Positions 1,252-24,763 of a DNA stretch of 26,820 bases are shown here, piece by piece (positions within the stretch are counted from its first letter, which is position 1; each line of letters opens with the position of its first letter). The translations under genes were made by a program, and so were the position numbers. Below the pieces are notes generated by a model that did no database searches, was not told the origin of the DNA, and saw nothing but the letters and a program-made list of their open reading frames with translations. Origin of the DNA: a virus; IMG/VR virus record IMGVR_UViG_3300021424_003081, positions 1 through 26,820 of that record. One strand, written 5' to 3'.

Positions 1252-1950
1252 ATGATTTTTTTAACTTCAGGTTGTAGTTTCACCGGACAACAAAATCTAA
1301 AAAACGGATGGCCTGTGTGGTTAAAAGACTTTGGTGCTGTTCGTAATCTTGGTATGCCTGGCGCAGGTAACCAATATATAAGTGACAGTATAATTTTAGA
1401 ACTAATTTATTCAAATTTTGATTATGATTGTGTAATAGTTATGTGGTCCGGACTACAAAGAATAGATTTAATAGTTGATGAACTAGTTGTTGACAACAAA
1501 AGACAAGCTTTAGATAACATATTTTTTGAGTTCAGTGGTGATGTACTAAGCCAAAATTCAATTTACCAAGAACTTATTAAAAAAGGAAACGAGTTAACTA
1601 GAGGCATTAGAAGTTTATTTGAAATGATTAAATTGCAAAATTTTTTAAAAAGTAAAGGCATAAAATATTATTTCATGACTTACGTAAATTATTGGAACCA
1701 CAAAGATTATGTAAAAAATAGAAATTTTGGAGTTTATAAATATCAAGAATTAAAAAATATATGCAAGGAAATTGATTTTGAAAACTTTATTTTTGCAGAA
1801 AATAATGATTGTATATATGAAACATCGCTAAATTGCAATGGTTTAGAATCAGATGACTTTCATCCTTCGACTGTTGGATATGATAATTGGATGAGGAGTT
1901 ATGTTTATCCAAGATTAATTAAAGATAAAATAATAAAATTTAACTCGTAA
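1252..1950 (+). CDS. SGNH/GDSL-type hydrolase-like protein
   Basis: A 232-residue protein with the block pattern of the SGNH hydrolase fold: an N-terminal strand then GCSFTG (nucleophile candidate S9), a GMPGAGNQ block around 35-41, and a late DDFHPS block giving the D201/H204 pair. In this family these residues cleave ester or acetyl groups on sugars or lipids. No signal peptide is seen, so it probably acts inside the cell or on a virion component. The gene is visibly more A+T-rich than its neighbours, suggesting separate acquisition. It sits between nrdB and glutaredoxin with no clear promoter. A truncated relative of its first residues follows at once. Substrate unknown. Confidence 0.7.
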   Translation: MIFLTSGCSFTGQQNLKNGWPVWLKDFGAVRNLGMPGAGNQYISDSIILELIYSNFDYDCVIVMWSGLQRIDLIVDELVVDNKRQALDNIFFEFSGDVLSQNSIYQELIKKGNELTRGIRSLFEMIKLQNFLKSKGIKYYFMTYVNYWNHKDYVKNRNFGVYKYQELKNICKEIDFENFIFAENNDCIYETSLNCNGLESDDFHPSTVGYDNWMRSYVYPRLIKDKIIKFNS

Positions 1951-2611: not shown

Positions 2612-2872
2612 ATGCGTGGTGCAGCTCGTAAAGGTCAAGATGTAGCAGGCGGTCTAATCATTGCAGGTAGTCCTGATGTGATAGTAAATGGCACTCCCCA
2701 GGCTAGAATTGGCGACGCGGTCCAAGGGCATGGACCCGGAGTACATGCTGGACCAGTGATGGCTCAAGGTTCATCTGATGTAATTGTTAATGGGATTCCG
2801 GCCTGTAGACTAGGTGATCCAGCCACTTGCGGTCACACAACATCTGGCAGTCCTGATGTTTTTATTAATTAA
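2612..2872 (+). CDS. PAAR-domain protein (tail spike tip)
   Basis: An 86-residue PAAR protein: repeated SPDVIVNG / SSDVIVNG / SPDVFIN strands, two short arms with GDAVQGHG and GDPATCGH, and conserved His and Cys residues (GHGPGVHAG, CGH) that bind a metal at the cone tip. In T4-like phages and type VI secretion systems such proteins sharpen the central spike that pierces the host envelope (T4 gp5.4). Length is that of a minimal PAAR tip with no toxin extension, so this is a virion part rather than an effector. It is preceded by AGGAAAA at 2602-2608, a weak ribosome site. Confidence 0.93.
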   Translation: MRGAARKGQDVAGGLIIAGSPDVIVNGTPQARIGDAVQGHGPGVHAGPVMAQGSSDVIVNGIPACRLGDPATCGHTTSGSPDVFIN

Positions 2873-9474: not shown

Positions 9475-11361
9475 ATGAGTACTATCATTGGTATTGATCT
9501 TGGTACCACCAATAGCTGCGTAGCAGTTGTCGAAAACGGAATCCCTAAAATAATTGAAAATTCAGAAGGCGCACGTACTACGCCCAGCATTGTGGCCTAT
9601 ACCTCAGACGAAGTTCTGGTAGGCGCTGGCGCCAAACGTCAGGCTGTAACCAATCCCAAGAACACTATCTATGCTGCCAAGCGACTGATCGGACGCAAGT
9701 TCATGGAGCAGGCTGTACAAAAAGACATCAATCTCATGCCCTATGAAATCATGGAGAGCAAGAACGGTGATGCTTGGGTACAGGCCAACGGCCAAGAACT
9801 GGCGCCTCCGCAAATCTCAGCTGAAGTGCTACGCAAGATGAAAAAGACCGCTGAAGACTATCTTGGGCACGAAGTAACACGAGCAGTAATTACAGTCCCT
9901 GCATATTTCAATGATAGCCAGCGTCAGGCCACCAAAGATGCGGGTGCTATTGCTGGACTTGAGGTATTACGTATAATCAACGAGCCAACGGCAGCAGCCC
10001 TGGCATATGGAGCAGACAAGAGTGACAAAAAAGACCGTAAAATTGCTGTGTATGATCTTGGTGGCGGTACCTTTGATATATCTATTATCGACATCGCTGA
10101 TGTGGATGGTGATAAACAATTCGAAGTACTTAGCACCAATGGGGATACATTCCTAGGAGGCGAAGATTTTGATCAACGCATTATGGATTACCTTATTACT
10201 GAATTTAAGAAGGAATCTGGAGTTAATCTCGGCCGAGACGTAATGGCGCTACAGCGACTAAAAGAAGCTGCCGAGCGTACCAAGATTGAGTTGTCCAACA
10301 ACACACAAACAGATGTAAACTTACCTTACATCACTGCTGATGCCACTGGTCCAAAACATCTTAACATTAAAATTACTCGAGCCAAATTAGAAAGTCTAGT
10401 TGATGATCTAATTCAGCGTACCATCGAACCATGCCGTACAGCAATGCAAGATGCTGGAGTAACTGCCGGCGATATAGATGAGATTATTTTAGTTGGTGGC
10501 CAAACACGTATGCCCAAAGTGCAAGAAGCGGTTGAACAGTTATTCGGACGAGCACCACGTCGTGATGTTAATCCAGATGAAGCAGTAGCAGCCGGAGCAG
10601 CAGTACAAGGTGCTGTACTAGGTGGTGATCGTAAAGATGTGCTATTACTTGATGTTACCCCACTGAGCCTAGGTATTGAAACCATGGGCGGAGTGATGAC
10701 CAAACTAATACCAAAGAATACAACTATTCCTACCAAGCATAGTCAAGTGTTCAGCACAGCTGAAGACAATCAGCCTGCAGTTACTATCAAAGTCTATCAA
10801 GGTGAACGTGAACTAGTACAGCACAACAAACTGCTAGGCGAATTTAATTTAGAAGGTATCGATCCTGCACCTAGAGGTATGCCCCAAATTGAAGTTGTTC
10901 TAGATGTAGATGCAAATGGCATTCTTAAAGTAAGTGCTCGAGACAAAAAAACTGGCAAAGAAAATCGGATTACCATTAAATCTGATAGTGGTCTAAGTCA
11001 AGAACAGATTGAGGCGATGATTCGCGATGCTGAAACAAATGCCGCTGCGGATCGAAAGCAACTAGAGCTCATTGAAACTCGTAACCAAGCGGATTCAGTG
11101 ATCCACCAAGTAAGAACTGATCTGAAAGAAGTTGGGGGCAAACTCGCAGAAGATCAGACGAAGACAATAAACGATAAAATAAGTGAACTAGAACAAGCCA
11201 TTGCAGGCACAGACCGAGAAGCAATTACAACAAAATTGACTGAATTGTTTGTTGCCTCAAATGCAATCAACGAAGCAAAACAGCCGTCAACTACAGAGCA
11301 ATCTGTAAAGCCCACTGCAGATGACAATGTAGTAGATGCTGAGTTTACAGAAAAGCCGTAA
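9475..11361 (+). CDS. dnaK: Molecular chaperone DnaK (Hsp70), full length
   Basis: A complete Hsp70 of 628 residues (E. coli DnaK has 638). The ATPase domain (about 1-385) begins [19 protein letters not shown] and has the [44 protein letters not shown] and [14 protein letters not shown] blocks. Then come the linker [18 protein letters not shown], the beta-sandwich substrate domain ([27 protein letters not shown]) and a lid of five helices. It ends [10 protein letters not shown], like the cellular DnaK tail. All key motifs are intact, so it is expected to bind ATP and fold client proteins, needing host DnaJ and GrpE, which are not in the window. It has its own early and late promoters and an AAGGAG site. 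Wording is closest to proteobacterial DnaK, so recent host capture is likely. Confidence 0.98.
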
Positions 11362-11371
11362 AGAATATGCG

Positions 11372-11398
11372 GTGTAGATGCCCGGGTGGGGTCTACAC
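11372..11398 (+). other. Intergenic hairpin between dnaK and hsp20, no U-tract
   Basis: Perfect 7-bp stem GTGTAGA (11372-11378) with TCTACAC (11392-11398) around a C/G-rich loop that can pair further (CCC with GGG). No T-run follows, so it is not a standard terminator; an RNase processing or stability element is more likely. Confidence 0.6.
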
Positions 11399-11437
11399 TC
11401 ATATGTCATAACTTGCTTATAGAAAGGAGAACGTATT

Positions 11438-11875
11438 ATGACAACTTATACAATTAGCACTTTTGATTTACCAACACTTCATCGCCATGCTGTAGGCTTT
11501 GATAGATTGTTCAACGAACTAGGACGCACTTTTGCCAATAGTAAAGCCGACAACTATCCGCCTCACAACATTGTTCGAATTGACGAAAATCACTATGCCA
11601 TCCAACTAGCGGTTGCTGGCTTCAGTGAAGATGAACTTGATATTGAATACAAAGAAAATGTTCTAACGATTCGAGGCGAACAAAAGCAAAAAGATGAATA
11701 CGAATACTTGCACCGTGGCATCAGTGCAAGAACTTTCACTCGTCATTTTACTTTAGCTGACAATGTGGAAGTTAAAGGCGCTACAGTAATTAATGGTATT
11801 TTGGCAGTTAGTTTGGAGCATATTGTTCCCGAAGAACAAAAGCCCAAGAAGATTGCAATTACATTCGCTAAGTAG
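11438..11875 (+). CDS. hsp20: Small heat shock protein Hsp20 (IbpA-like)
   Basis: A 145-residue small heat shock protein. A short N-terminal arm (FDLPTLHRHAVGFDRLF) leads into the alpha-crystallin domain, about residues 40-138: NIVRIDENHYAIQLAVAGFS, LDIEYKENVLTIRGEQ, the RTFTRHFTLADNVEVKGATV strands and the signature NGILAVSLEH. It ends with a short IAITFAK tail. Such proteins hold unfolding proteins in a refoldable state for DnaK. Family members occur in many T4-like cyanophages. AAGGAG lies eight bases before ATG 11438. It sits between dnaK and clpS, flanked by two hairpins lacking U-tracts, so the three genes may form a processed transcript. Confidence 0.97.
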   Translation: MTTYTISTFDLPTLHRHAVGFDRLFNELGRTFANSKADNYPPHNIVRIDENHYAIQLAVAGFSEDELDIEYKENVLTIRGEQKQKDEYEYLHRGISARTFTRHFTLADNVEVKGATVINGILAVSLEHIVPEEQKPKKIAITFAK

Positions 11876-11884
11876 TATAATAAC

Positions 11885-11908
11885 AGTAGGGGGATACATC
11901 CCCCTACT
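11885..11908 (+). other. Strong intergenic hairpin between hsp20 and clpS
   Basis: An almost perfect inverted repeat, AGTAGGGGGAT / ATCCCCCTACT (11885-11895 with 11898-11908), with five G-C pairs in a row. No T-run follows on either strand. It could end transcription weakly, or act as a processing site or RNA stabiliser between the two genes. Confidence 0.75.
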
Positions 11909-11923
11909 TAAACCTACAAGACC

Positions 11924-12235
11924 ATGAGCAAAACAGATATTGTAGTCAAACCTAGGATTCAAATCAAAACAAACATCCAGCCACCCAGTTTGTTTAATGT
12001 AATATATCTAAACGATAATGTAACAACTATGGAATTTGTTGTAGAATCTCTCAAAACAATTTTCCATCATTCAGAGCAAACTGCACATGAAATAACTTTG
12101 AAAATTCATCAAGAAGGATCTAGCGTGGTTAGTACTTTACCTTATGAAATAGCTGAACAAAAAGGTGTAGAAGCAACTCTTCTTGCTCGTAACAACGGCT
12201 TTCCTCTCAACGTAAAATTAGAACCAGCTAATTGA
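11924..12235 (+). CDS. clpS: ClpS, N-end rule adaptor of ClpA/ClpP
   Basis: A 103-residue ClpS. The flexible N-terminal tail (1-19) that drives ClpA engagement precedes the core: FNVIYLNDNVTTMEFVVESL, HHSEQTAHEITLKIHQEGSS and EIAEQKGVEATLLARNNGFP, ending in the PLNVKLEP strand. N30, D31, M36 and H62 correspond to the substrate-pocket residues of E. coli ClpS (N34, D35, M40, H66), so recognition of N-terminal Leu/Phe/Tyr/Trp is probably kept. The phage protein would steer host ClpAP proteolysis. Ribosome site is weak (ACAAGACC). The next ATG follows the stop directly. Confidence 0.95.
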   Translation: MSKTDIVVKPRIQIKTNIQPPSLFNVIYLNDNVTTMEFVVESLKTIFHHSEQTAHEITLKIHQEGSSVVSTLPYEIAEQKGVEATLLARNNGFPLNVKLEPAN

Positions 12236-14166: not shown

Positions 14167-16176
14167 ATGAAATATTGGGGCAAGATCATTGCGATCATGG
14201 CCGCCATGTGTTTCAATTCAGTAAATGCTTTCGAGTCAGGCACAGATTACAATAGTGCAAACATGTCGTATATGGCAAACAGCACTATCAGTCAAATAGT
14301 AGTTTTCGATTCAACAATGCAAAATGGAGGAACTTTAACATTTACCGTTGAGGCGCATGCTGGCGGAGGAAGACCATTACAACACGATACTGGTCAACTT
14401 AAATTAGAGTTTTACAATTCTAGTAATACACTATTAGGATCAAGTCAAACAAGTTATGCCACAGGTAACTTGTTACAAATGAATGCATGGAGTTCGGTAC
14501 CGGGCGATAACAGTGAACCATGGACCACACTAAGTTTAACATCTACCAACTGTGGATCAGCAGGCAGTTGTAGTAGTGTTGCTTATGTAAAAGTAGTCAT
14601 GATTGGTACTGACACTAGTTGGTGGGCAGGTAACTATGGTCCACAATGGCGTGTACCGACTGTTACATTTACACCCACAGGTGGTACAGCAGGCAATAAT
14701 ATACTTTACAATCCAGAATTTGGTCTAGATCCCGGCGGCGTCTTTGCACAAGGTTGGACCAGTTCTACCAGCTGGGGTGCTTGCGGTACGACCAGCGGAA
14801 GTGTAATGTGTACAACCACAGCCACAGGTGTAACTGCCAACATGAGCGGCGGAGGCTATGATGCCAATGGTGGCACCACAGCAGCCACTCCAGGAGGTTA
14901 TAGCGGTACACTTACCACAGCCAACTTTAGTGGTAGTAGCGGAGGTGGCTCGCCCACTGTGGTATCAACAGCACCTGGTACACCTATAGTGTATACTAGT
15001 TCATCCACAGGCGCCACTACAACTACAGTTGTTGATACACCAGGTGCCACTACTGTAGTAGAAACTGTTACTGACACTAGAGGAGCCGGTACAGCAAAAT
15101 CTTTGACTGTGACAAGAAATATCACCATTGTGGCTACCACACCAGTTACACGGGTGACAACAGATACAACTCCAGTGACTACAACCACTGTGACAACTCC
15201 TACCACTGTAACCACATACAGCGATGGATCCACTGTCACAACAAATGGTACCCCGGTTACTACAACTAGTACCGTCAATCAAACAGTAACAACTACAACC
15301 ACATTTGATCAAGTGGTCACAACTGGCACTAGTCAAGATTATGCAACAAGAATTGATCAATACACAGTGCTAGCTGACACTAACTCTTATGTTAATTTGC
15401 TATCACGAAATGATGTATTGGCCAGACAAAGCATAGTTGATGGCGAAATCGCGTTCCGTGGCAATGTAGGCAAAGAAGGCACTGTAAGTTTTTACTCTAT
15501 GGGAGAACGAACCGGTGAGTACACCGTAGACGGATATACCATTAGCAGCAAGAAATTTGGTTTTGGTATTGATAAGTTATTATCTCCAAGAACCGTTATT
15601 GGTTTCAGTGTCAGTCGTTCAGAATCTGCCATGTCCGGCAACAATGCCACAGGTGGATTGAACAAAGATATTGTAAACTTGTATTCTATCTCAAATTTGA
15701 GAAATTGGTTGTTTGCCTCCGAGTTGGGATATGCCAATAACGAAATGACCACAACACACAGTTTGCCTGAATTGGGTTACAGCAACAGTTCAAGAACTGT
15801 CGGTAGTGATAGATGGTTGGGACTGAGACTTTATACTCCGGATTTAAAAGGGCTACGTCCATTTGTTGGATACCGAGTGGAACAAAATACGCGAGATGCT
15901 GTGACCGAACTGGGTAGTGCTTTGACTGCCATGTCATATGCAGCGGTAGACTCAACTGCAAAACGCAGCGAACTTGGTGTGCGTTTTGATAGATCATTTG
16001 GATCAGTTGCGGTGTTTGGTGAATATTCACAAACTGACGACGCAGTCAAAATTGCAAGGTTGGGTATTAGAAAAGACCTTACAAATAGACTTTCATTGGC
16101 AGTGGGGGCAGTTCAACTACAACACCGTGACATACAAAGTGTAGCCGGCAACTTTGTGTTAAGAATAGGGTTTTAA
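14167..16176 (+). CDS. Autotransporter-like outer-membrane protein
   Basis: A 669-residue protein with a Sec signal peptide (1-21, MKYWGKIIAIMAAMC..., cleavage near VNA|FE). A beta-rich, Ser/Gly/Asn-rich passenger (22-250) includes WWAGNYGPQWRVPTVTFTPT and has two cysteine pairs (CGSAGSC; ACGTTSGSVMC). A Thr/Val-rich stalk (about 255-385, TTVVDTPGATTVVETVT and the like) follows. The last 280 residues alternate polar and hydrophobic strands, with YSISNLRNWLFASELGYA, RPFVGYRVEQ and FGEYSQTDD, and end in FVLRIGF, the terminal-Phe signal of outer-membrane beta-barrels. The layout fits type V secretion, placing the passenger on the infected cell's surface. A role in adhesion or exclusion is inference. 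Ends at a strong terminator. Confidence 0.85.
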   Translation: MKYWGKIIAIMAAMCFNSVNAFESGTDYNSANMSYMANSTISQIVVFDSTMQNGGTLTFTVEAHAGGGRPLQHDTGQLKLEFYNSSNTLLGSSQTSYATGNLLQMNAWSSVPGDNSEPWTTLSLTSTNCGSAGSCSSVAYVKVVMIGTDTSWWAGNYGPQWRVPTVTFTPTGGTAGNNILYNPEFGLDPGGVFAQGWTSSTSWGACGTTSGSVMCTTTATGVTANMSGGGYDANGGTTAATPGGYSGTLTTANFSGSSGGGSPTVVSTAPGTPIVYTSSSTGATTTTVVDTPGATTVVETVTDTRGAGTAKSLTVTRNITIVATTPVTRVTTDTTPVTTTTVTTPTTVTTYSDGSTVTTNGTPVTTTSTVNQTVTTTTTFDQVVTTGTSQDYATRIDQYTVLADTNSYVNLLSRNDVLARQSIVDGEIAFRGNVGKEGTVSFYSMGERTGEYTVDGYTISSKKFGFGIDKLLSPRTVIGFSVSRSESAMSGNNATGGLNKDIVNLYSISNLRNWLFASELGYANNEMTTTHSLPELGYSNSSRTVGSDRWLGLRLYTPDLKGLRPFVGYRVEQNTRDAVTELGSALTAMSYAAVDSTAKRSELGVRFDRSFGSVAVFGEYSQTDDAVKIARLGIRKDLTNRLSLAVGAVQLQHRDIQSVAGNFVLRIGF

Positions 16177-17396: not shown

Positions 17397-17544
17397 CTTA
17401 GTAAAGTGGGGACTGAGATTGTTCTTTTGGGCAGCAATGACCATGGCTATCAGACAAGGCAGCTTGTTTGCTATGGCAATGTGTGCTACAATATTCCTAA
17501 TCATGGAATATTTCATTGAAGATCTAGAAAAGTACCCTACATAA
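17383..17544 (+). CDS. Small membrane protein (53 aa)
   Basis: ATG 17383 opens 53 codons, starting MYTIDLVKWGLRLFFWAAMT and ending FIEDLEKYPT. Two hydrophobic stretches (about 10-22 and 27-43), rich in Met and Ala, form a helical hairpin, and the tail is acidic. Stop shares a base with the next ATG (TAATG), so it is coupled to the cell-wall peptidase gene. A holin or peptidase partner is conceivable from context only. Confidence 0.6.
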   Translation: MYTIDLVKWGLRLFFWAAMTMAIRQGSLFAMAMCATIFLIMEYFIEDLEKYPT

Positions 17545-18308
17545 TGTTTAGATTTTTTCTTGCTTACGCGATCTTTATGATTGTGAGCTACCCTGTTTTT
17601 TCTACTAATATATCGGCTAAGTCTTGGCTTATAGCCGACGGTAATGGTACCGTATTAGAATCGGAAAATATTGAAATACAGCAGCCTATTGCAAGTATAA
17701 CCAAGTTAATGACAGCCATGGTAGTTCTTGATTCTAACGATAATTTACAACAACCTCTTGACAGGAGATTTCGCGGCCTAATTGTTAATAGAGAACAATT
17801 AATTAATTTGGCGGTTATACGTTCAGATAACTATGCGGCTAAAATGCTATGCGAAGTTTATCGTAGAGGATACAATAATTGTATATCTGATATGAATCAT
17901 AAAGCTCAAATACTAGGAATGACCGATACAAGATTCGCGGACAGCAGTGGCCTAGATAACAGAAATGTAAGTACACCTCGAGATTTGATTAAGTTGTTGA
18001 TGGCAGCTGAACGATATAAAGAAATTGTGTATGCAAGCAATCAAGCAGTAGGCGAACTTGTAAAGAAGAAAAAGAAAAAATTCATTAAATTTAAATATAA
18101 TAACACAAATCCTTTGGTTAACAAGTATAACGTAATTGTAAGTAAGACTGGATATGTAAGAGCCAGCGGCGGATGTTTAGTAATGAGTGTGTACATTCGC
18201 AACCAAAAACGCTTGTTTGTGGTATTAAATAGTAACACAACCAGAACACGTATACATGACATGGAACAATTAATTTTGAATACTATCAATGCAACCAGCG
18301 TACAATAA
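17544..18308 (+). CDS. S11-family penicillin-binding peptidase (PBP7/DacA-like)
   Basis: A 254-residue serine peptidase of the D-alanyl-D-alanine carboxypeptidase/endopeptidase family. A signal peptide (1-20, MFRFFLAYAIFMIVSYPVFS) sends it to the periplasm. All three catalytic motifs are present: SITK (S51, K54), SDN (94-96) and KTG (201-203). Conserved blocks include QPIASITKLMTAMVVLD, the LGMTDTRFADSSGLD region and STPRDLIKLLMAAER. It lacks the long C-terminal anchoring domain of PBP5 and is shorter than PBP7, so it is a soluble form. A run of six lysines (174-179) in a loop is odd. It would trim or cut peptidoglycan cross-links, aiding lysis or altering the wall. TAATG couples it to the small membrane gene. 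Confidence 0.93.
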   Translation: MFRFFLAYAIFMIVSYPVFSTNISAKSWLIADGNGTVLESENIEIQQPIASITKLMTAMVVLDSNDNLQQPLDRRFRGLIVNREQLINLAVIRSDNYAAKMLCEVYRRGYNNCISDMNHKAQILGMTDTRFADSSGLDNRNVSTPRDLIKLLMAAERYKEIVYASNQAVGELVKKKKKKFIKFKYNNTNPLVNKYNVIVSKTGYVRASGGCLVMSVYIRNQKRLFVVLNSNTTRTRIHDMEQLILNTINATSVQ

Positions 18309-18366: not shown

Positions 18367-19593
18367 ATGCACATAGGCTTTATCGGTCTTGGTAAGTTGG
18401 GCATGCCTTGTGCTGAAACAATGGCACAAGTTCACGATGTAGTTGGTTATGATGTGTGTCCAAAAACCAGCAACAAAATTAAAATATCTGACTCTATACG
18501 AGGTGCAGTGGTAGGAAAAGATTTGGTATTTGTGGCAGTACAAACTCCGCATGATCCTGCCTATGATGGCAGCCAACCAATTACACATTTGCCTAATAAA
18601 GATTTTGATTATACTACAGTTAAACAAGTGCTTAACAATATCAATGCATGGGCCAGCCCAGATCAGTTAGTTGTGTTAATTAGCACAGTATTACCTGGTA
18701 CAGTTAGAAAAGAACTACGCTCATGTATTACCAATGCTCGCTTTGTTTATAATCCTTACTTGATTGCCATGGGCAGTGTTGAGTGGGACATGATAAATCC
18801 TGAAATGGTTATTATTGGAACCAAGGATGGAAGTGAAACAGGAGACGCCAAGACATTGATTGAATTTTATAAGTCTATCATGCAAAACAATCCTAGATAC
18901 ATAGTCGGTACCTGGGATGAAGCAGAATCAATCAAAATATTTTATAACACATTTATTAGTACCAAAATTGGATTAGTAAACATGATTCAAGATGTTGCTA
19001 TGGCAAATGGTAATATAAATGTTGATGTTGTTACTGAGGCATTGGCCAATAGCACCATACGTATAATGAGTCCAAAATACATGCGAGCAGGAATGGGCGA
19101 TGCAGGTCCATGCCACCCAAGAGACAATATTGCACTACGTTGGTTGGCAGAAAATTTAAATCTTGGTTATGATATTTTTAATACCATAATGCATGCAAGA
19201 GAAAAACAGGCACGCAACATTGCAAGATATCTTGCCAAAATACAAAGGCAATACAACTTGCCTATATTCATTATGGGCAAAGCATATAAACCAGACGTTG
19301 ATTTCGTTGATGGCAGTTATAGCTTATTGATAGGTCATTATTTGCAATCTATTCAAGCCAAATTTTATTATGTAGATCCTTTAACCGGCGACGATCCTCC
19401 ATTCAATGGTATGCCGGTAATAGCATTTTTAGCTCACAACAGAAATGTCACATACGGATATACAGGAGAACAACGAGAACAAGAACTATATGTTGACTTA
19501 GAACCTGGCAGTGTAATTGTTGATCCTTGGCGCAAATATAAAACCAGTAAAGATTACAAGGTAATTTATTATGGTAACACACGAACAGTTTAA
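18367..19593 (+). CDS. UDP-glucose/GDP-mannose-type sugar dehydrogenase
   Basis: A 408-residue NAD-dependent nucleotide-sugar dehydrogenase. The Rossmann motif is IGFIGLGKLGMP (3-14), with VAVQTPHDP, the STVLPGTVR strand, and the central helix ESIKIFYNTFISTKIGLVN holding K190 and N194. The catalytic cysteine is C249 in AGPCHPRDN, which corresponds to the family's G-x-C-x-P-K/R-D block. The C-terminal domain starts IMGKAYKPDVDFVDGS. The enzyme would oxidise a UDP- or GDP-hexose to the uronic acid; substrate is not fixed. AAAAGGAAAA precedes ATG 18367. The next gene begins 23 bases before its stop, so the cassette is closely coupled. Confidence 0.9.
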   Translation: MHIGFIGLGKLGMPCAETMAQVHDVVGYDVCPKTSNKIKISDSIRGAVVGKDLVFVAVQTPHDPAYDGSQPITHLPNKDFDYTTVKQVLNNINAWASPDQLVVLISTVLPGTVRKELRSCITNARFVYNPYLIAMGSVEWDMINPEMVIIGTKDGSETGDAKTLIEFYKSIMQNNPRYIVGTWDEAESIKIFYNTFISTKIGLVNMIQDVAMANGNINVDVVTEALANSTIRIMSPKYMRAGMGDAGPCHPRDNIALRWLAENLNLGYDIFNTIMHAREKQARNIARYLAKIQRQYNLPIFIMGKAYKPDVDFVDGSYSLLIGHYLQSIQAKFYYVDPLTGDDPPFNGMPVIAFLAHNRNVTYGYTGEQREQELYVDLEPGSVIVDPWRKYKTSKDYKVIYYGNTRTV

Positions 19594-20086
19594 CATTGCA
19601 AAATTTTGGGATGATGAATATACAAAATTAGATTACATAAAAGAAAAATTCAATGATCCTGCTACACAAATAGAGTGGGAAGATGCGGGATTCCGCGGTC
19701 CATTTGGTGGTTGGATGTGCGACATGCGTAGTGCTCAGCCCAGTTGGAATCAAAAATTTATTGACTTCTTTGAAACTTATGGCAAATGGAAGAACATAGG
19801 CACATGTTATTACAGAATGGATCCAGGTAGCAGTTTACCCAATCACATTGATACCTATCGTCGCTACATTGAATTATTCAATTTACAAGGTCAGGAATAC
19901 CGGATACGTCGAGCAGTGGTATTTTTACAAGATCGTAAACCCGGACATTTTGCAGAATGTGAAAGCACTGGGTATGCTGATTGGATTGCAGGATTTACTT
20001 TGATATGGCCATGGGATGCACCACACAGTGCATTTAACATGGGATTCCAACCTAGATATACATTACAAATAACCGGACACATATGA
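19571..20086 (+). CDS. 2OG-Fe(II) oxygenase-like protein (AspH-related)
   Basis: A 171-residue cupin-fold protein. Ferrous ligands fit H92 and D94 (SLPNHIDTYRR) and H152 (DAPHSAFN), with R162 (PRYTLQITGH) for the 2-oxoglutarate carboxylate. Blocks YRMDPGSSLPNHID and RRAVVFLQDRKPGHFAEC are of the aspartyl/asparaginyl hydroxylase and phage 2OG-oxygenase type. It could hydroxylate a sugar, a peptide or a tail-fibre residue. It begins inside the dehydrogenase gene (23-base overlap) and overlaps the amidinotransferase by ATGA. Substrate unknown. Confidence 0.8.
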   Translation: MVTHEQFNIAKFWDDEYTKLDYIKEKFNDPATQIEWEDAGFRGPFGGWMCDMRSAQPSWNQKFIDFFETYGKWKNIGTCYYRMDPGSSLPNHIDTYRRYIELFNLQGQEYRIRRAVVFLQDRKPGHFAECESTGYADWIAGFTLIWPWDAPHSAFNMGFQPRYTLQITGHI

Positions 20087-21003
20087 TACACTCATTCAAT
20101 GAATGGGATCCATTACGAGAAGTTGTTGTGGGCCGTGCTGATTTTTCTAATTGGCCTAGTGATGATCCTGTATTCGCGCAAGAAAGTGAAAAAACCACTT
20201 GGCGAGAAACACCAGTACCTAGCGGGCCTGTTCCGGATTGGATCATTGATGAAACCAATGAAGATCTTGATGTTCTAGTACAAACCCTAGAGCAATACGG
20301 TGCTGCCGTACACCGACCCAAAGCCATCAATTTTCAAGAGCGCGGCGGTATGTACAATTATTGTCCAAGAGATCGATTATTGATCCATGGAAGCACAATT
20401 GTTGATCCTGCCATGATGTATCCTTGTAGAGACATGGAAATAGAAGCACTAGACGACGTTGTGTATCGTTCCGATACTGTACATCGTATGCCACGCAACG
20501 GCCAATATGTTATGGATGCTGCAAACGTTTTACGATTAAATGACCAGATGCTGTTTCTTGAAAGCGTAAGTGGTAATTATCAAGCAGCACATTGGTTGAT
20601 GGGAAAATTTCCTTATGTCAAAATTGAAATATGTAAGTTTTACTCAGGAGCACATATTGACAGCACCATAGTTCCTTTGAGAGAAGGATTGGTGATGGTA
20701 AATGCCAGCAGGGTCAATATGGATAACTTACCCAATGTTTTTGACAATTGGGAAGTTATTTGGATAGATGATGTAGTAGAACAGGCATTTTATCAGTATC
20801 CGTATGCTAGTAAATGGATAGCTTTAAATATGCTGGTTTTGGATCCCAACACAGTTATTGTTGATAAACAGCAGAATAAATTAATAAAGATATTAGAAAT
20901 ACAAAATTTTACGGTAATCCCATTGGAACTAAGGCATTCGAGAACACTAGGCGGTGGTTTTCATTGTGTAACACTTGATTTAATTCGCCAACCCAATAAA
21001 TAA
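20083..21003 (+). CDS. Amidinotransferase (AGAT/StrB-like)
   Basis: A 306-residue protein of the guanidino-group transferase family, which moves an amidino group from arginine to an amine (glycine, inosamine and so on). It starts FNEWDPLREVVVGRAD, the family's opening block, followed by PRDRLLIHG. Catalytic residues fit D145 (MDAANVLR), H191 (GAHIDSTIVPLREGL) and C295 (LGGGFHCVTLD). Length is short compared with AGAT (about 400), but the beta/alpha propeller blocks are all visible. The substrate is not set by these motifs. It overlaps the oxygenase gene by ATGA and lies next to the tail-fibre and radical SAM genes. Confidence 0.9.
   Translation: MIHSFNEWDPLREVVVGRADFSNWPSDDPVFAQESEKTTWRETPVPSGPVPDWIIDETNEDLDVLVQTLEQYGAAVHRPKAINFQERGGMYNYCPRDRLLIHGSTIVDPAMMYPCRDMEIEALDDVVYRSDTVHRMPRNGQYVMDAANVLRLNDQMLFLESVSGNYQAAHWLMGKFPYVKIEICKFYSGAHIDSTIVPLREGLVMVNASRVNMDNLPNVFDNWEVIWIDDVVEQAFYQYPYASKWIALNMLVLDPNTVIVDKQQNKLIKILEIQNFTVIPLELRHSRTLGGGFHCVTLDLIRQPNK
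20995..21002 (+). promoter_or_regulatory. Possible late promoter variant (AATAAATA) before fibre genes
   Basis: CAATAAATAATAAAC overlaps the amidinotransferase stop. A start near 21008 would leave a leader of about 20 bases holding AAAGGG before ATG 21029. Because the box coincides with AAT AAA TAA codons, chance is possible. Confidence 0.35.
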
Positions 21004-21028
21004 TAAACTAATAATAACAAAGGGTATC

Positions 21029-21766
21029 ATGAGTTTTGGAAGTTACACTGATTGTCTTTTACGAGCGTACAAAGCACATACCAAACCAACTGAAATATTA
21101 AAACGCAAAAAAGAAATACTTGAGGTAATTGCTGAATTTCACAACTTCAATTCCACAAGAGTTTTGTATGTGGGTTTTAATCCTGCTATGCTAGTTGAAT
21201 CAGCTAAAAATATTTTTTTAACGCAGGCATCTAACGATGCTTGTGAGTTCTTTAAGCAAAATAATGTTTCGTTTGATTATATACCAGCTGACAAATTGGG
21301 ATCATATCACAAGCACTTTGATTGTGTTATGGTTTTGGATGAATATTTCACCTTTGCCAAAGACGATAATGAACAACGAGCACGAGTACAAGAAATTTGT
21401 AATCTTGCTCGAGAATATGTGATAACTACATGTAAGGATTACAAAAATCAAGAATTTAAAGACAGAGAATTCAGTATTCCGGCGTTGATAAGAAATGCTC
21501 AATCAACAGATATTTTTTTAGAGTTCCATGACCATGACAGTACCGATAGAAATAGCTGGAAAACTCATGTGTATCAGATTAGTAATCAATCGTTAATAGC
21601 ATCTATGCCATTTGCTAGACGAGCAATGTTTTTTAAACAGTTGGCAAAATTTAGTCATGATGCCGGCGCAGTAGGTTTTAATGTACATAAAAATTTAATG
21701 TACAAAAGTTTAATCAAGAAAAATTACGAACACGTAATTAGTATTCAATTTGATAATGGATCTTAA
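21029..21766 (+). CDS. Methyltransferase-like protein, unassigned (245 aa)
   Basis: A 245-residue alpha/beta protein. A possible Rossmann strand-loop, STRVLYVGFNPAMLVESAKN, with glycine in the SAM-binding position, is followed by FDYIPADKLG, FDCVMVLDEYFTFA and YVITTCKDYKN, which match the order of motifs I to V of class I methyltransferases. The classical GxGxG is not complete, so SAM binding is uncertain. The C-terminal part (RRAMFFKQLAKFSHDAG ... MYKSLIKKNYEHV) is helical. AAAGGG lies before ATG 21029. It overlaps the fibre gene by 11 bases. A role in modifying the fibre or the sugar made by the neighbouring enzymes is inference. Confidence 0.6.
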   Translation: MSFGSYTDCLLRAYKAHTKPTEILKRKKEILEVIAEFHNFNSTRVLYVGFNPAMLVESAKNIFLTQASNDACEFFKQNNVSFDYIPADKLGSYHKHFDCVMVLDEYFTFAKDDNEQRARVQEICNLAREYVITTCKDYKNQEFKDREFSIPALIRNAQSTDIFLEFHDHDSTDRNSWKTHVYQISNQSLIASMPFARRAMFFKQLAKFSHDAGAVGFNVHKNLMYKSLIKKNYEHVISIQFDNGS

Positions 21767-23015
21767 CACACATTTAGCAAAAATTGTTGAAGGACTTGTA
21801 GCAGATATAACCGCCAATGTATTGGTTAAGGTTGATTCTGCTATTGGCGCGGCCATAAACAACAGATTGGCAGCATACGACTACTCTTCACATATTCAAG
21901 AAGCAGCAAATAGCGCATTTGAGAGAAGAATAAGTGAATACACAGTAGATCCAAAGCGATTAGAAAATAGAATAGTCAGTAAAATAAATGAAACTATTGA
22001 TGCTGCACAAAATCAAACTAGAGAACTTGTAGAAACACAAGTGCAACAAAGATTGACCACTATTGACTTTCAACGTGCAATAACTGATAATGTGAGCACT
22101 TTAGTAGCTGACAGGATGACCGAATTTGTTTTTCCAGAATCTAGTATAGATCCTAAAGCTATCAAACTATCAAATTTAAAAATTACCGGCGATAATATCA
22201 ACGGTGGCATTATTGAAAATTTTAGTAGCACTGGTATCGATGATCGAGCCAGCCAAGTTGCATTAACAATACTAGATGACAGTACCGTAATAGAAAACAA
22301 TTTGTTGACCAAGGATCTCACAGTTCAAGGATCAATGACAATAAATGGTTCATTTATTGTAAATGGCGACGTGCCTGAAAACACTGAGTTTTTTAAACGT
22401 CTAGTGTCCAGTGTAAGTTCTAACACTTTGACCAATCTAGATTATACATTGTTTAATGGATACAGTAATTTAATTTTTGATAAAATCAAGCAGGATGGCC
22501 TTGATTTAGAAAAAATAACTTTAAATGGTACAGAAATAGCCAAAAATAATATGTTGGGATCCAGTATCGTTAATTCAAATTTACAAACATTAGGTGAATT
22601 ACTAGAACTCAAAGTAAGTGGAGAAAGCCTACTTGCACAAACATTTTATGTTACACCCAAGCGTGTTGGAATAAACACTATTGAACCTTCGGCAGCACTT
22701 AGCATTTGGGATGACGAAATTGAAATAGTTGCCAAGAAAAAATCTCGAGACACAGGGATTCTTGGTACAACAAGACAGCAAAAACTTGTACTGACTGCCA
22801 ATAGCAAAGATAATATAGTTTTATGTGAAGATGGATCGGTGCAAATTGACAATCTCAAAATAGGTCAAATGCAATTCACCACTTCAAATACTCCGCCAAA
22901 TTTTGTCAGTGAACGCTGTCATGTGGTCTGGAACACCAATCCCAATCCAGGTGGACCACTAGGCTGGATTTGTCTTGGCGGAGCCAACTGGGCTAATTTT
23001 GGCATAATTGATTGA
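21756..23015 (+). CDS. Tail-fibre-like structural protein
   Basis: Start at ATG 21756 (TTG 21750 in the same frame is rejected). The 419 residues begin with a helical, coiled-coil-rich part (1-115; NNRLAAYDYSSHIQEAANSA, ETQVQQRLTTIDFQRAI), then short Asn/Thr/Ile-rich strands typical of fibre shafts (ALTILDDSTVIENNLLTKDL, LTVQGSMTINGSFIVNGD). It ends in a C-terminal knob region: PPNFVSERCHVVWNTNPNPG and GPLGWICLGGANWANFG. The GWxCxGGA/W ending recurs at the ends of phage fibre and adhesin proteins. The stop overlaps the radical SAM start. Role in host binding is inferred. Confidence 0.8.
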   Translation: MDLNTHLAKIVEGLVADITANVLVKVDSAIGAAINNRLAAYDYSSHIQEAANSAFERRISEYTVDPKRLENRIVSKINETIDAAQNQTRELVETQVQQRLTTIDFQRAITDNVSTLVADRMTEFVFPESSIDPKAIKLSNLKITGDNINGGIIENFSSTGIDDRASQVALTILDDSTVIENNLLTKDLTVQGSMTINGSFIVNGDVPENTEFFKRLVSSVSSNTLTNLDYTLFNGYSNLIFDKIKQDGLDLEKITLNGTEIAKNNMLGSSIVNSNLQTLGELLELKVSGESLLAQTFYVTPKRVGINTIEPSAALSIWDDEIEIVAKKKSRDTGILGTTRQQKLVLTANSKDNIVLCEDGSVQIDNLKIGQMQFTTSNTPPNFVSERCHVVWNTNPNPGGPLGWICLGGANWANFGIID

Positions 23016-24304
23016 TGGCCAATCAAAAAATTTTTTGTGCAGTGCCATGGCATAACACTCATTTGTATTGGGACGGCACTTACGGTGTTTGTTGTTCAGA
23101 ATCCCAAAAAGCACAAGGCACAAAATACAATATTCAAAATACTAATCTTATCACATGGTATAACAGCAATACCATGCAAAACTTTAGAGAACGAATTCTA
23201 GGTAACGAACCATTACCTGAGTGTATTGGATGTTATCATGAAGAATTATACGGACATCAAAGTCGTAGAATAAAAGAAAATTATAAAGTAGCTATATTCA
23301 CAGAACATGCATTTGAAAAAAGTTTTGACCAGAGTCCATGGAAAAAAAATTTCAAATCTGACAGTGATAAGTTACCAATTGATTGGCATATTGATTTTGG
23401 TAATGAATGTAATCTAGCATGCAAAATGTGCGGTCCCGATGCAAGTAGCAAAATTGCTTCGCATTATACCAAATGGAAAATTCCGTTTCAGCACAAAGCA
23501 AATTGGACTAACGACAACCAGTGTTATCAACAATTCCTTGAAAACGTGCAATCAGTCTCTAAATTGCATAGAATACATGTAATGGGCGGCGAACCGACTA
23601 TTAATAAAAGATTTATAGAATTTATTGATTGGTTGGTTAAAAACAAACTGACTCATTTAAGCCTCAGTTTTGTAACCAATGCCACAGTTATAAATCACGA
23701 TTTGTTAGATAACTTACAAAAATTTAAAAGAGTTGACATAGAAGTCAGCGTGGAGTCGACAGAATCTAACAATCACTATATCAGACAAGGTAGTGACACA
23801 GAACAGGTCTGGAAGAATATAGAATATCTTAACAGTTTACAAAATGAAAACTTTTCACTAGTTTTAAGAAGTGTCCCGCAATTGTTAAGTATAAACACCT
23901 ATCATAAACTTATAAAACGTGCGTTTGATTTCAACATCAGTATTCAAAGCAATCCGTTACGGCAACCATCGTATCTAGCGATTGACGTGCTTCCATATGA
24001 AGTGCGTCAGAAATTCAGACAAAATTTTGTAACATTAAAAGAATTTATTCAACAAAACAGTTCTGTAGATTTTAACACGTTGAGTGTTGGTAGAGATACT
24101 TCAAGACTAAGCTTACAATTAATTAGGGAATGCGATACCATGATTAATTTCATTGACAATCAAGCTCAAACTGATACAAATAAATTAAGAGAATTAGTAG
24201 CATGGATGACGCGGTGGGATACAGTACATAATTTAAACGCCTTAGAAATTTATCCTGAGTATCAAGAACTTTTTTTACAACATGGATACACAATTCAATC
24301 TTGA
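23015..24304 (+). CDS. Radical SAM enzyme with N-terminal auxiliary-cluster cysteines
   Basis: A 429-residue radical SAM protein starting at ATG 23015 (overlap with the fibre stop). The CxxxCxxC cluster site is ECNLACKMCGPD (C132, C136, C139), followed by the glycine-rich MGGEPTINKRFIEFID motif and a TIM-barrel pattern (LSFVTNATVI, VDIEVSVESTE). Unusually, the cysteines of an extra cluster come first: FCAVPW (C8), GVCCSES (C26, C27) and ECIGC (C70, C73), a twitch/SPASM-like module placed N-terminally. Such proteins occur in aquatic T4-like phages. It overlaps both neighbours, tying it to the tail fibre. Possible substrate: a peptide or the fibre. Reaction unknown. Confidence 0.92.
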   Translation: MANQKIFCAVPWHNTHLYWDGTYGVCCSESQKAQGTKYNIQNTNLITWYNSNTMQNFRERILGNEPLPECIGCYHEELYGHQSRRIKENYKVAIFTEHAFEKSFDQSPWKKNFKSDSDKLPIDWHIDFGNECNLACKMCGPDASSKIASHYTKWKIPFQHKANWTNDNQCYQQFLENVQSVSKLHRIHVMGGEPTINKRFIEFIDWLVKNKLTHLSLSFVTNATVINHDLLDNLQKFKRVDIEVSVESTESNNHYIRQGSDTEQVWKNIEYLNSLQNENFSLVLRSVPQLLSINTYHKLIKRAFDFNISIQSNPLRQPSYLAIDVLPYEVRQKFRQNFVTLKEFIQQNSSVDFNTLSVGRDTSRLSLQLIRECDTMINFIDNQAQTDTNKLRELVAWMTRWDTVHNLNALEIYPEYQELFLQHGYTIQS

Positions 24305-24737
24305 CGTAGAAATAACTGTAGTTCCGCGTTGGTGGCGAACTAAACCTGTTATCACCTACGGAGTAGATTCACAAACAATTGACACAGTAGAACTGACGGA
24401 TATCTTAGTTATAAAAGTTAATCAAAATTTAAAAAACGGTTCACATGTTTTTTGGATAGAATTTGATAATAAAGATTATAATGATTGCGTTCTAGAAAAA
24501 AATCTAGATATGGCTATAGAAATTCATGAAGTAAAATTTGAAAATTTAAGTTTGGATAGATTCAAATGGACCGGAAATTACCGTCCAAAATATCCCAGAG
24601 ATTACCCAGACAAAAAGCCTGTTATAGAATCAGCAACATATCTGGGTTGGAACGGACGTTGGGAGTTGCCGTTTACTACGCCCATATTCACCTGGATACA
24701 CCGTTTGGAGAATTTGGGTTGGTTATACGAACCTTGA
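24282..24737 (+). CDS. Conserved phage protein after radical SAM gene (151 aa)
   Basis: Overlaps the radical SAM gene by 23 bases. The protein is rich in Trp, Tyr and Pro: NLDVEITVVPRWWRTKPVIT, a strand-rich domain with HVFWIEFDNKDYNDC, then YRPKYPRDYPDKKP and a closing FTTPIFTWIHRLENLGWLYE. The middle resembles compact beta domains found beside phage fibre genes, and the tail recurs in aquatic phages as far as I recall. No catalytic motif. It may be a partner or chaperone for the fibre or the radical SAM enzyme; context only. Confidence 0.7.
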   Translation: MDTQFNLDVEITVVPRWWRTKPVITYGVDSQTIDTVELTDILVIKVNQNLKNGSHVFWIEFDNKDYNDCVLEKNLDMAIEIHEVKFENLSLDRFKWTGNYRPKYPRDYPDKKPVIESATYLGWNGRWELPFTTPIFTWIHRLENLGWLYEP

Positions 24738-24763
24738 CACAAATCTAAATATGCTGTTATAAT
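24734..24763 (+). promoter_or_regulatory. Near-consensus sigma70 promoter, strongest in window
   Basis: Perfect TTGACA at 24734-24739, overlapping the previous stop, an 18-base spacer, and extended -10 TGT-TATAAT with the hexamer at 24758-24763. A start near 24770 gives a 220-base untranslated region before ATG 24991. A nine-codon frame (MTLVLSNSE) begins at the predicted start, echoing the other nearly leaderless promoters. Confidence 0.88.

What the first reader, a model, noticed from the sequence alone, without database searches (positions are those of the whole stretch)
18367..24304. Five-enzyme cassette wrapped around a tail-fibre-like gene
Nucleotide-sugar dehydrogenase, 2OG-Fe(II) oxygenase, amidinotransferase, methyltransferase-like protein and radical SAM enzyme are joined by overlapping starts and enclose the fibre-like gene. 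This mix resembles pathways making guanidino- or uronic-acid-modified sugars or modified peptides. I infer a possible fibre-modifying or capsule-mimicking pathway, not yet described for phages as far as I know.
Basis: inference. Interest (0 to 1): 0.75.

Follow-up and report, generated by a model that had tools for sequence, protein, structure and literature searches.

The report
Phage sugar-decorating gene cassette beside fibre
Uncultured phages, some of them very large, carry a conserved set of enzyme genes that probably builds an unusual sugar, perhaps one bearing an arginine-like guanidino group, and in this virus the set sits next to a fibre-like gene that it accompanies in only some of its relatives.

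Summary
The genes are real and at the stated coordinates, but the unit is misdrawn. The conserved core is three genes: nucleotide-sugar dehydrogenase (UGD), 2OG-Fe(II)-oxygenase-like protein (OG2) and StrB1-like amidinotransferase (AMT), in that order in 80 of 80 AMT-anchored viral loci. OG2 has AMT in 79 of 80 OG2-anchored loci, and a GT-B-like glycosyltransferase, C1, joins 72 of those 80. The "methyltransferase" (MTL) has the fold but lacks the SAM-binding glycines and travels with the fibre-like gene (FIB). The radical SAM gene is a loose passenger. Core and fibre are separable: 43 of 80 AMT loci have MTL or FIB next, 27 have UvdE next. Related phages carry MTL-FIB without the core, some with other sugar genes. 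Nine of nine large core-carrying contigs tested also encode sugar-aminotransferase-family genes. I read it as a virus-encoded pathway for a decorated, possibly guanidino, sugar placed on a surface glycan; host envelope or virion is undecided. Glycan-decorating clusters in jumbo phages are published (PMC7824862); eight searches showed no description of the UGD-OG2-AMT core. A new variant of a known kind.

The parts
18367..19593 (+). UGD: nucleotide-sugar (UDP-glucose 6-dehydrogenase-like) dehydrogenase, 408 aa
   Evidence: Pfam PF03721 2.5e-15 and PF00984 2.6e-15 over cut-off; C-terminal PF03720 below cut-off; phrog_9148 UDP-glucose dehydrogenase 6.6e-97; the 27 PDB profile hits are sugar dehydrogenases; active-site residues in 53 of 53; TIGR03026 143.7 bits, below its 189.8 cut-off
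19571..20086 (+). OG2: 2OG-Fe(II)-oxygenase-like protein, 171 aa, possibly related to the aspartyl/asparaginyl hydroxylase group
   Evidence: HxD...H plus R in 62 of 62; PF05118 rings in 10 of 30 homologues, best 2.7e-5, not in the window protein; no clear PDB match
20083..21003 (+). AMT: L-arginine:X amidinotransferase, StrB1-like, 306 aa
   Evidence: Profile vs PDB: StrB1 1bwd 3.5e-89 full length, HsvA 1.4e-50, AGAT 4.6e-49, SxtG 5.6e-47; Asp-His-Cys site kept; no Pfam-A family at 0.1
21029..21766 (+). MTL: class-I methyltransferase-fold protein with a degenerate SAM site, partner of the fibre-like gene, 245 aa
   Evidence: AlphaFold2 pLDDT 92.4; VIA Z 17.9 to TylM1, rmsd 3.3 over 222; 0 of 28 with the SAM motif; FIB present in 73 of 80 MTL loci; MTL-FIB identity correlation 0.87
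21756..23015 (+). FIB: fibre-like protein, about 419 aa (ORF from TTG 21750)
   Evidence: Sequence appearance only: N-terminal 125 aa with 2% Gly and one Pro; no annotated homologue found
23015..24304 (+). RSAM: 'twitch' radical SAM protein, 429 aa (ORF from TTG 23012)
   Evidence: NF033640 275 bits, cut-off 170; PF04055 7e-13; CX3CX2C and four further cysteines in 22 of 22
24282..24737 (+). Small ORF, 151 aa, overlapping RSAM; unknown
   Evidence: No Pfam, PHROG or NCBIfam match; tblastn match in 9 of 80 AMT loci, this virus included
17544..18308 (+). Flanking gene, not part of the pathway: peptidase S11 (D-Ala-D-Ala carboxypeptidase), 254 aa
   Evidence: PF00768 3e-37; the same family lies upstream of MTL at core-free sites L167 (directly) and L189, and by eye in others

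Best explanation
The window holds a viral glycan-decoration module (UGD-OG2-AMT, usually with the GT-B-like glycosyltransferase C1 on the opposite strand) that lies upstream of a separate MTL-FIB fibre-like unit. Proposed mechanism: UGD oxidises C6 of a nucleotide hexose (UDP-glucose or similar) to a uronate; OG2 hydroxylates the sugar or a substituent; AMT moves an amidino group from L-arginine to an amine on the sugar or its substituent, giving a guanidino group; C1-family transferases attach the product to a glycan. The amine probably comes from a DegT-family sugar aminotransferase coded elsewhere in the virus or by the host. Shown: gene identities, kept active sites, conserved linkage, glycan context. 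Inferred: substrates, order of steps, product, C1 activity. Target: I favour host envelope glycan (receptor masking or exclusion of other phages), about 50%; virion or fibre about 30%; other about 20%.
For: Linkage: UGD, OG2, AMT on one strand in this order in 80 of 80 AMT-anchored loci (70 distinct AMT sequences), with an inserted gene between OG2 and AMT in four (nearest 80 of 186 stretches). OG2-anchored: AMT 79, C1 72, UGD 69 of 80. AMT: StrB1 302 bits, far above glycine amidinotransferase at 170. C1: AlphaFold2 pLDDT 85.9; the 50 VIA rows listed are glycosyltransferases or related sugar-transfer synthases, best Z 11.6, rmsd 4.5 over 270, T4 beta-glucosyltransferase; a 788-aa viral match is named UDP-glucose/GDP-mannose dehydrogenase, suggesting a natural C1-UGD fusion. 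Context: UGD relatives lie with carbamoyltransferase, NadE-like and methyltransferase genes in phages Bellamy and HTVC008M, in Bellamy also with glycosyltransferases; L344 and L346 have UGD-OG2 followed by a DegT-family gene and no AMT; L098 has AMT beside a different 2OG oxygenase family (PF13640), with C1-like, DegT and carbamoyltransferase genes; phage S-SCSM2R has OG2-AMT amid glycosyltransferases; L099, filed as Bdellovibrionota, has OG2-AMT, a C1-like and a weakly aminotransferase-like gene (PF00155 below cut-off). DegT-family genes in 9 of 9 large core-carrying contigs tested, 8 full length, against 0 of 8 MTL-FIB records without the core beside it. In G003 a DegT lies beside an epimerase/dehydratase, with carbamoyltransferase and C1 genes within about 10 kb.
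Against: No chemistry was tested. The window has no aminotransferase that I recognised, and no C1 beside UGD; a C1 relative lies outside it on a longer contig of the same virus. UGD is absent near OG2-AMT in 11 of 80 loci, so a uronate is not always needed; anchored on UGD, only 42 of 80 loci have OG2 and 39 AMT. UGD is below the curated NCBIfam cut-offs it was measured against; the window OG2 rings in no library. Seven of the eight records without DegT are fragments of 12-168 kb, and two of them (L183, L185) were not searched whole for AMT. C1's structural match is moderate (Foldseek best E 5.8e-4, TM 0.37) and Pfam did not recognise it. An AMT homologue in Planktothrix (L085) lies beside a D-Ala-D-Ala-ligase-like ATP-grasp gene, so the family alone does not imply a sugar acceptor.
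Confidence: 0.6

Rival explanations
1. Fibre-modifying pathway: the cassette glycosylates or otherwise modifies the adjacent fibre-like protein, changing host range or masking the virion.
For: MTL or FIB directly follows AMT in 43 of 80 loci; FIB found in 59 of 80 OG2-anchored loci; overlapping ORFs in the window; identities of UGD and FIB correlate (0.84). Other sugar genes follow MTL-FIB where the core is missing: RmlC-, cytidylyltransferase- and dehydratase-family genes in L185, a dehydratase-family gene in L182, phosphomannomutase-family genes in L167 and L183. Virion glycosylation by phages is reported (Freeman et al. 2023, seen only as cited in PMC12619734).
Against: 27 of 80 AMT loci have UvdE next; 4 of 8 core-carrying records, two of them over 320 kb, show no FIB match and a fifth only marginal ones; of nine core-free MTL-FIB loci listed (of eleven), five (L166, L175, L187, L189, L199) show no sugar gene directly beside MTL-FIB by eye; FIB itself is not proven to be a fibre.
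Confidence: 0.2
2. Free small molecule or modified peptide: AMT, OG2 and RSAM make a guanidino amino acid, peptide or toxin-like metabolite that changes the infected cell.
For: AMT relatives occur in Streptomyces and related genera, known antibiotic producers (the last point recalled), and in Planktothrix beside an ATP-grasp gene; RSAM resembles peptide-maturase models but far below their cut-offs; PMC7824862 offers a secondary metabolite as an alternative for similar clusters (passages).
Against: Linkage with C1 and UGD; RSAM is not part of the core (29 of 80 OG2 loci; weak correlations 0.16-0.41). No precursor-peptide search was made.
Confidence: 0.1
3. Creatine or guanidinoacetate metabolism: AMT makes guanidinoacetate and MTL methylates it.
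For: A survey lists a viral gene as K00613 glycine amidinotransferase (PMC8226683, table passage) and another discusses viral creatine synthesis (PMC11360552, passages).
Against: AMT scores 302 bits to StrB1 and about 170 to glycine amidinotransferase; MTL lacks the SAM-site glycines in 28 of 28 and travels with FIB more than with AMT (73 against 64 of 80 MTL loci; correlation 0.87 against 0.59).
Confidence: 0.04
4. DNA hypermodification: C1 glycosylates viral DNA with the decorated sugar, as T4 beta-glucosyltransferase does.
For: Closest solved fold to C1 is T4 beta-glucosyltransferase.
Against: Fucosyl- and protein O-glucosyltransferases follow at Z 10.4 against 11.6; a thymidylate-synthase-family gene, the family that includes hydroxymethylases (recalled), is in only 4 of 9 core-carrying contigs and also in the one core-free large contig.
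Confidence: 0.06

Closest known systems
Jumbo-phage capsular polysaccharide modification clusters (PMC7824862, passages read)
   Same: Virus-encoded sugar-nucleotide enzymes, glycosyltransferases, 2OG oxygenases and carbamoyltransferases, varying between related phages
   Different: A word search of that paper gives no 'amidinotransferase' and no 'UDP-glucose'; the UGD-OG2-AMT core and its place beside MTL-FIB are not described in what I read
StrB1, inosamine-phosphate amidinotransferase of streptomycin synthesis (1bwd)
   Same: Full-length similarity and active-site residues
   Different: No streptomycin-type cyclitol pathway was recognised beside it; acceptor unknown
Campylobacter phage CP220/CPt10 exchangeable modules (PMC2853527, passages read)
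   Same: Amidinotransferase homologue (26% identity) in an exchangeable phage module with radical SAM and sugar-transferase-like genes
   Different: Tblastn of OG2 hit no Campylobacter phage and that of UGD lists none among the rows shown; read there as genes that may improve the fitness of the infected host
Synechococcus phage S-SCSM2R cluster (PQ898602)
   Same: Adjacent OG2-AMT homologues (25% and 35%) amid glycosyltransferases, radical SAM and a DegT-family gene
   Different: Its UGD homologue (27%) is about 35 kb away; no MTL or FIB match in the 17 kb fetched
Pelagimyophage host recognition cluster (PMC7029224, passages read)
   Same: Tail fibres together with glycosyltransferases in a variable island; UDP-glucose dehydrogenase among the phages' LPS-related genes
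   Different: HTVC008M has carbamoyltransferase and NadE-like partners and is not among the AMT hits

Membership tests
L-arginine:X amidinotransferase (pentein fold; StrB1/AGAT) | Asp-His-Cys catalytic residues | tested here: met
   D145 in 80 of 81, H191 and C295 in 81 of 81, aligned to StrB1 D179/H227/C332
L-arginine:X amidinotransferase (pentein fold; StrB1/AGAT) | Full-length sequence similarity to a characterised member | tested here: met
   StrB1 E 3.5e-89, profile 2-303 of 305; the window protein alone hits no Pfam-A model at 0.1
L-arginine:X amidinotransferase (pentein fold; StrB1/AGAT) | Amino-sugar or cyclitol acceptor | not testable with these tools
   Needs an enzyme assay
Nucleotide-sugar 6-dehydrogenase | NAD and central domains with catalytic Lys, Asn, Cys, Asp | tested here: met
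   PF03721 and PF00984 over cut-off; residues in 53 of 53 (their catalytic role is recalled)
Nucleotide-sugar 6-dehydrogenase | UDP-binding C-terminal domain | tested here: inconclusive
   PF03720 16 bits against 30; TIGR03026 143.7 against 189.8
2OG-Fe(II) oxygenase | HxD...H metal triad and distal Arg | tested here: met
   62 of 62 (the roles are recalled)
2OG-Fe(II) oxygenase | Match to a 2OG oxygenase family model | tested here: inconclusive
   PF05118 in 10 of 30 homologues, best 2.7e-5, not in the window protein
Class-I SAM methyltransferase | Rossmann-type methyltransferase fold | tested here: met
   Z 17.9, rmsd 3.3, 222 aligned to TylM1
Class-I SAM methyltransferase | Glycine-rich SAM-binding motif | tested here: not met
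   0 of 28 with D/E-x-G-x-G-x-[GATS] and no G-x-G in that loop; acid after strand 2 not conserved; of two control phage methyltransferases the pattern hit one
Radical SAM, twitch-domain subfamily | CX3CX2C and subfamily model over cut-off | tested here: met
   22 of 22; NF033640 275 against 170 bits
Phage tail fibre | Homology to a known fibre or virion protein | tested here: inconclusive
   No described family and no phage hit for three members
Phage tail fibre | Trimeric fibrous structure in the virion | not testable with these tools
   Needs virion proteomics or structure
GT-B glycosyltransferase (C1, not in window) | GT-B fold | tested here: met
   Model of one C1 (L059): best Z 11.6, rmsd 4.5, 270 aligned; Foldseek is weaker, best E 5.8e-4, TM about 0.3-0.4
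Jumbo-phage glycan-decoration cluster | Sugar-nucleotide enzymes with glycosyltransferases in a variable viral island | tested here: met
   C1 near OG2 in 72 of 80 loci, and sites without the core exist; in the window itself no C1 lies beside UGD

The most novel reading that the evidence does not exclude
These phages make a guanidino-sugar, assembling with UGD, OG2, a DegT-family aminotransferase and a StrB1-like amidinotransferase a positively charged hexuronate derivative, and put it with C1 on their own fibres or on the host surface: an antibiotic-type sugar chemistry reused by viruses for surface glycans. Viral amidinotransferases now labelled glycine/creatine metabolism genes in surveys would then be glycan enzymes.
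Probability: 0.3. Interest if true: 0.8.

Novelty: new variant of a known kind. Interest (0 to 1): 0.55.

Why it matters
If right, a widespread set of uncultured phages encodes a sugar chemistry known from antibiotic synthesis and uses it on surfaces, a direct handle on how large phages alter receptors or hide virions. It would also correct surveys that file viral amidinotransferases under glycine or creatine metabolism. The core with C1 is four genes, small enough to express in a laboratory strain.

Tried and rejected
Five-enzyme unit: rejected; the core is UGD-OG2-AMT. Active methyltransferase: rejected on the missing SAM motif, with the caution that the same pattern also missed one of two control phage methyltransferases. 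Creatine pathway: disfavoured. DNA modification through thymidylate-synthase-family genes: no association. Fibre homology: tblastn of three family members found nothing; sub-domain profiles of FIB hit no other kind of protein, only one extra short ORF that looks like a piece of FIB. MTL in phage records: none. C1 by sequence in PDB, NCBIfam and phage records: none; in Pfam only chance-level hits. PDB profile for OG2: only AtsK at E 0.64; for MTL none. UGD-anchored scan: OG2 in 42 and AMT in 39 of 80, so UGD also serves other clusters. Promoter scan: number found equals shuffles (36 against 38), so no transcription unit is claimed. Absence from print: eight literature searches; subscription papers and preprints are not held.

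Caveats on counts: each viral scan keeps the best 80 loci, and some are the same virus in different assemblies (70 distinct AMT sequences in the 80 AMT loci). ORFs in loci were called by a simple script, which missed some genes, so profile alignments hold fewer rows than loci. Neighbours marked 'by eye' were not tested; the labels UvdE, PAAR, ClpS, DnaK and peptidase S11, first given by eye, were confirmed on one or two examples each.
Full report
What the window is. It is a whole IMG/VR virus record of 26,820 bases. Of it, 26,299 bases are identical to part of a 49,354-base contig, and its genes match a 33,109-base contig at 100% in the 16.9 kb fetched. The window also holds ribonucleotide reductase, endolysin-like and Hsp20 genes, DnaK, ClpS and a PAAR protein. 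Relatives of the locus lie on contigs up to 374 kb.

Observation. The six ORFs are at the stated places. Four of the five junctions overlap; AMT and MTL are 25 nt apart; a seventh ORF (24282-24737) overlaps RSAM. Codon-level constraint is strong for UGD, OG2 and AMT and weaker for RSAM.

Identities. UGD has the sugar dehydrogenase domains and active site but a divergent C-terminal domain. OG2 keeps the HxD...H...R signature in 62 of 62 aligned homologues; 10 of 30 ring for PF05118. AMT is a StrB1-type amidinotransferase. MTL has the class-I methyltransferase fold, nearest to NDP-aminosugar N-methyltransferases such as TylM1 (Z 17.9, rmsd 3.3, 222 aligned), but not the SAM-binding glycines. RSAM is a twitch-domain radical SAM protein (NF033640). 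FIB has no described relative among those searched.

Who travels with whom. AMT-anchored scan: 186 stretches, best 80 kept; UGD, OG2 and AMT in order on one strand in 80 of 80, with an inserted gene between OG2 and AMT in four (L021, L034-L036). The next same-strand gene after AMT is MTL in 35, UvdE in 27, FIB in 8, an unknown 'c25' in 7, other in 2, contig end in 1 (UvdE family checked on one member). OG2-anchored, best 80 of at least 583: AMT 79, C1 72, UGD 69, FIB 59, MTL 47, RSAM 29. MTL-anchored, best 80 of 208: FIB 73, UGD 69, OG2 64, AMT 64, C1 57, RSAM 32; 11 have MTL-FIB without the core and 5 have UGD-MTL without OG2, AMT or FIB. UGD-anchored, best 80 of at least 519: C1 61, OG2 42, AMT 39, RSAM 38, MTL 29, FIB 29. 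Identities of MTL and FIB correlate at 0.87, RSAM with the others only at 0.16-0.41. The core is therefore UGD-OG2-AMT with C1; MTL-FIB is a second unit; RSAM is a passenger.

Separable units. Of eight core-carrying records, G006 (320 kb), G007 (364 kb), G008 and G009 show no FIB match; G005 shows only marginal matches inside very long frames; G010, G011 and G012 have it. Eight records with MTL but no AMT nearby show no AMT anywhere in the record; that answer has no in-call positive, though the same query rang in 9 of 9 core-carrying records. At core-free sites a peptidase S11 gene lies upstream of MTL (L167, L189; others by eye), and by eye UvdE lies downstream. There the gene after FIB can be another sugar gene: RmlC-, cytidylyltransferase- and dehydratase-family genes in L185, a dehydratase-family gene in L182, phosphomannomutase-family genes in L167 and L183. 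Five of nine listed show none by eye.

Glycan context. C1 (modelled from L059) folds as a GT-B glycosyltransferase (weaker by Foldseek). A 788-aa viral protein named UDP-glucose/GDP-mannose dehydrogenase matches C1 in structure, which suggests a fusion; I did not read its sequence. UGD relatives in phages Bellamy (58%) and HTVC008M (48%) sit with carbamoyltransferase, NadE-like and methyltransferase genes, in Bellamy also with glycosyltransferases. L344 and L346 have UGD-OG2 followed by a DegT-family gene, in L344 after an ATP-grasp gene, and no AMT. L098, filed under a Chloroflexi genome but looking viral, has a PF13640 oxygenase, AMT, a C1-like, a DegT-family and a carbamoyltransferase gene. 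L099, filed under Bdellovibrionota, has OG2, AMT, a C1-like and a weakly aminotransferase-like gene. Nine of nine large core-carrying contigs that I chose have DegT-family genes, eight full length and one (G012) only a short form; G014, core-free and 355 kb, has none, nor have seven further records of core-free loci, which are fragments. In G003 the DegT and an epimerase/dehydratase are neighbours, with carbamoyltransferase and C1 genes within about 10 kb.

Mechanism. Established knowledge of the families: UDP-glucose dehydrogenases make UDP-uronates, StrB1-type enzymes move the arginine amidino group to an amine, 2OG oxygenases hydroxylate, GT-B enzymes transfer sugars. From the context I infer a decorated, possibly guanidino, uronate or amino sugar transferred to a glycan. 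The target is not shown. The published proposal for similar clusters is decoration of capsular polysaccharide, or a secondary metabolite, in the setting of keeping out other phages (PMC7824862, passages).

Novelty. Clusters of this general kind are known; an amidinotransferase within an exchangeable phage module is known (PMC2853527, passages). The UGD-OG2-AMT core was not found in the eight searches listed. Two surveys report glycine amidinotransferase genes in viruses or prophages (PMC8226683, table passage; PMC10259446, passage), and one discusses viral creatine synthesis through GAMT (PMC11360552, passages); whether their genes belong to the AMT family here was not tested.

Noticed in passing
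window 24734-24763: A perfect 12-of-12 sigma-70-type promoter match with TG before the second hexamer (TTGACA-18-TATAAT) at the end of the cassette, before the next gene group; the overall number of promoter-like sites is no more than in shuffles.
   Followed up: no
window 14167-16176: 669-aa Thr-rich ORF with a signal-peptide-like start and a C-terminus ending in Phe that looks like an outer-membrane beta-barrel (by eye); no Pfam or PHROG match.
   Followed up: no
window 17544-18308: Phage-encoded peptidase S11 (D-Ala-D-Ala carboxypeptidase, PF00768 3e-37), also near this locus in relatives such as L167 and L189.
   Followed up: partly
window 1252-1950: Small protein beginning 'MIFLTSGCSFT' resembling, by eye, SGNH-like proteins beside UGD in loci L338 and L351; PF19547 only at 0.0071.
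   Followed up: partly
window 9475-12235: Hsp70/DnaK (PF00012 2.4e-257) and ClpS (PF02617 2.9e-26) with Hsp20 between them, all encoded by a phage; DnaK matches also in four related loci fetched (L020, L023, L052, L070).
   Followed up: partly
window 2612-2872: PAAR-motif protein (PF05488 6e-19), a possible tail-spike tip.
   Followed up: partly
L280 1130-2047, minus strand (outside the window, same virus): A PaaA_PaaC-family phenylacetate catabolism gene (PF05138 1.1e-95) on the phage contig; aldolase-, endonuclease III- and cytochrome-like ORFs near it by eye.
   Followed up: partly
L364 5702-6739; also G005, G006, G010: A second, more distant AMT homologue on several large contigs; in G007 beside two C1-family genes and near DegT and carbamoyltransferase genes.
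   Followed up: partly
L084 and L098: Virus-like contigs filed under a Bacteroidetes and a Chloroflexi genome, probably mis-binned.
   Followed up: partly
BFVD A0A6J5TB28: 788-aa phage protein named UDP-glucose/GDP-mannose dehydrogenase that matches the C1 glycosyltransferase model, a likely C1-UGD fusion.
   Followed up: no
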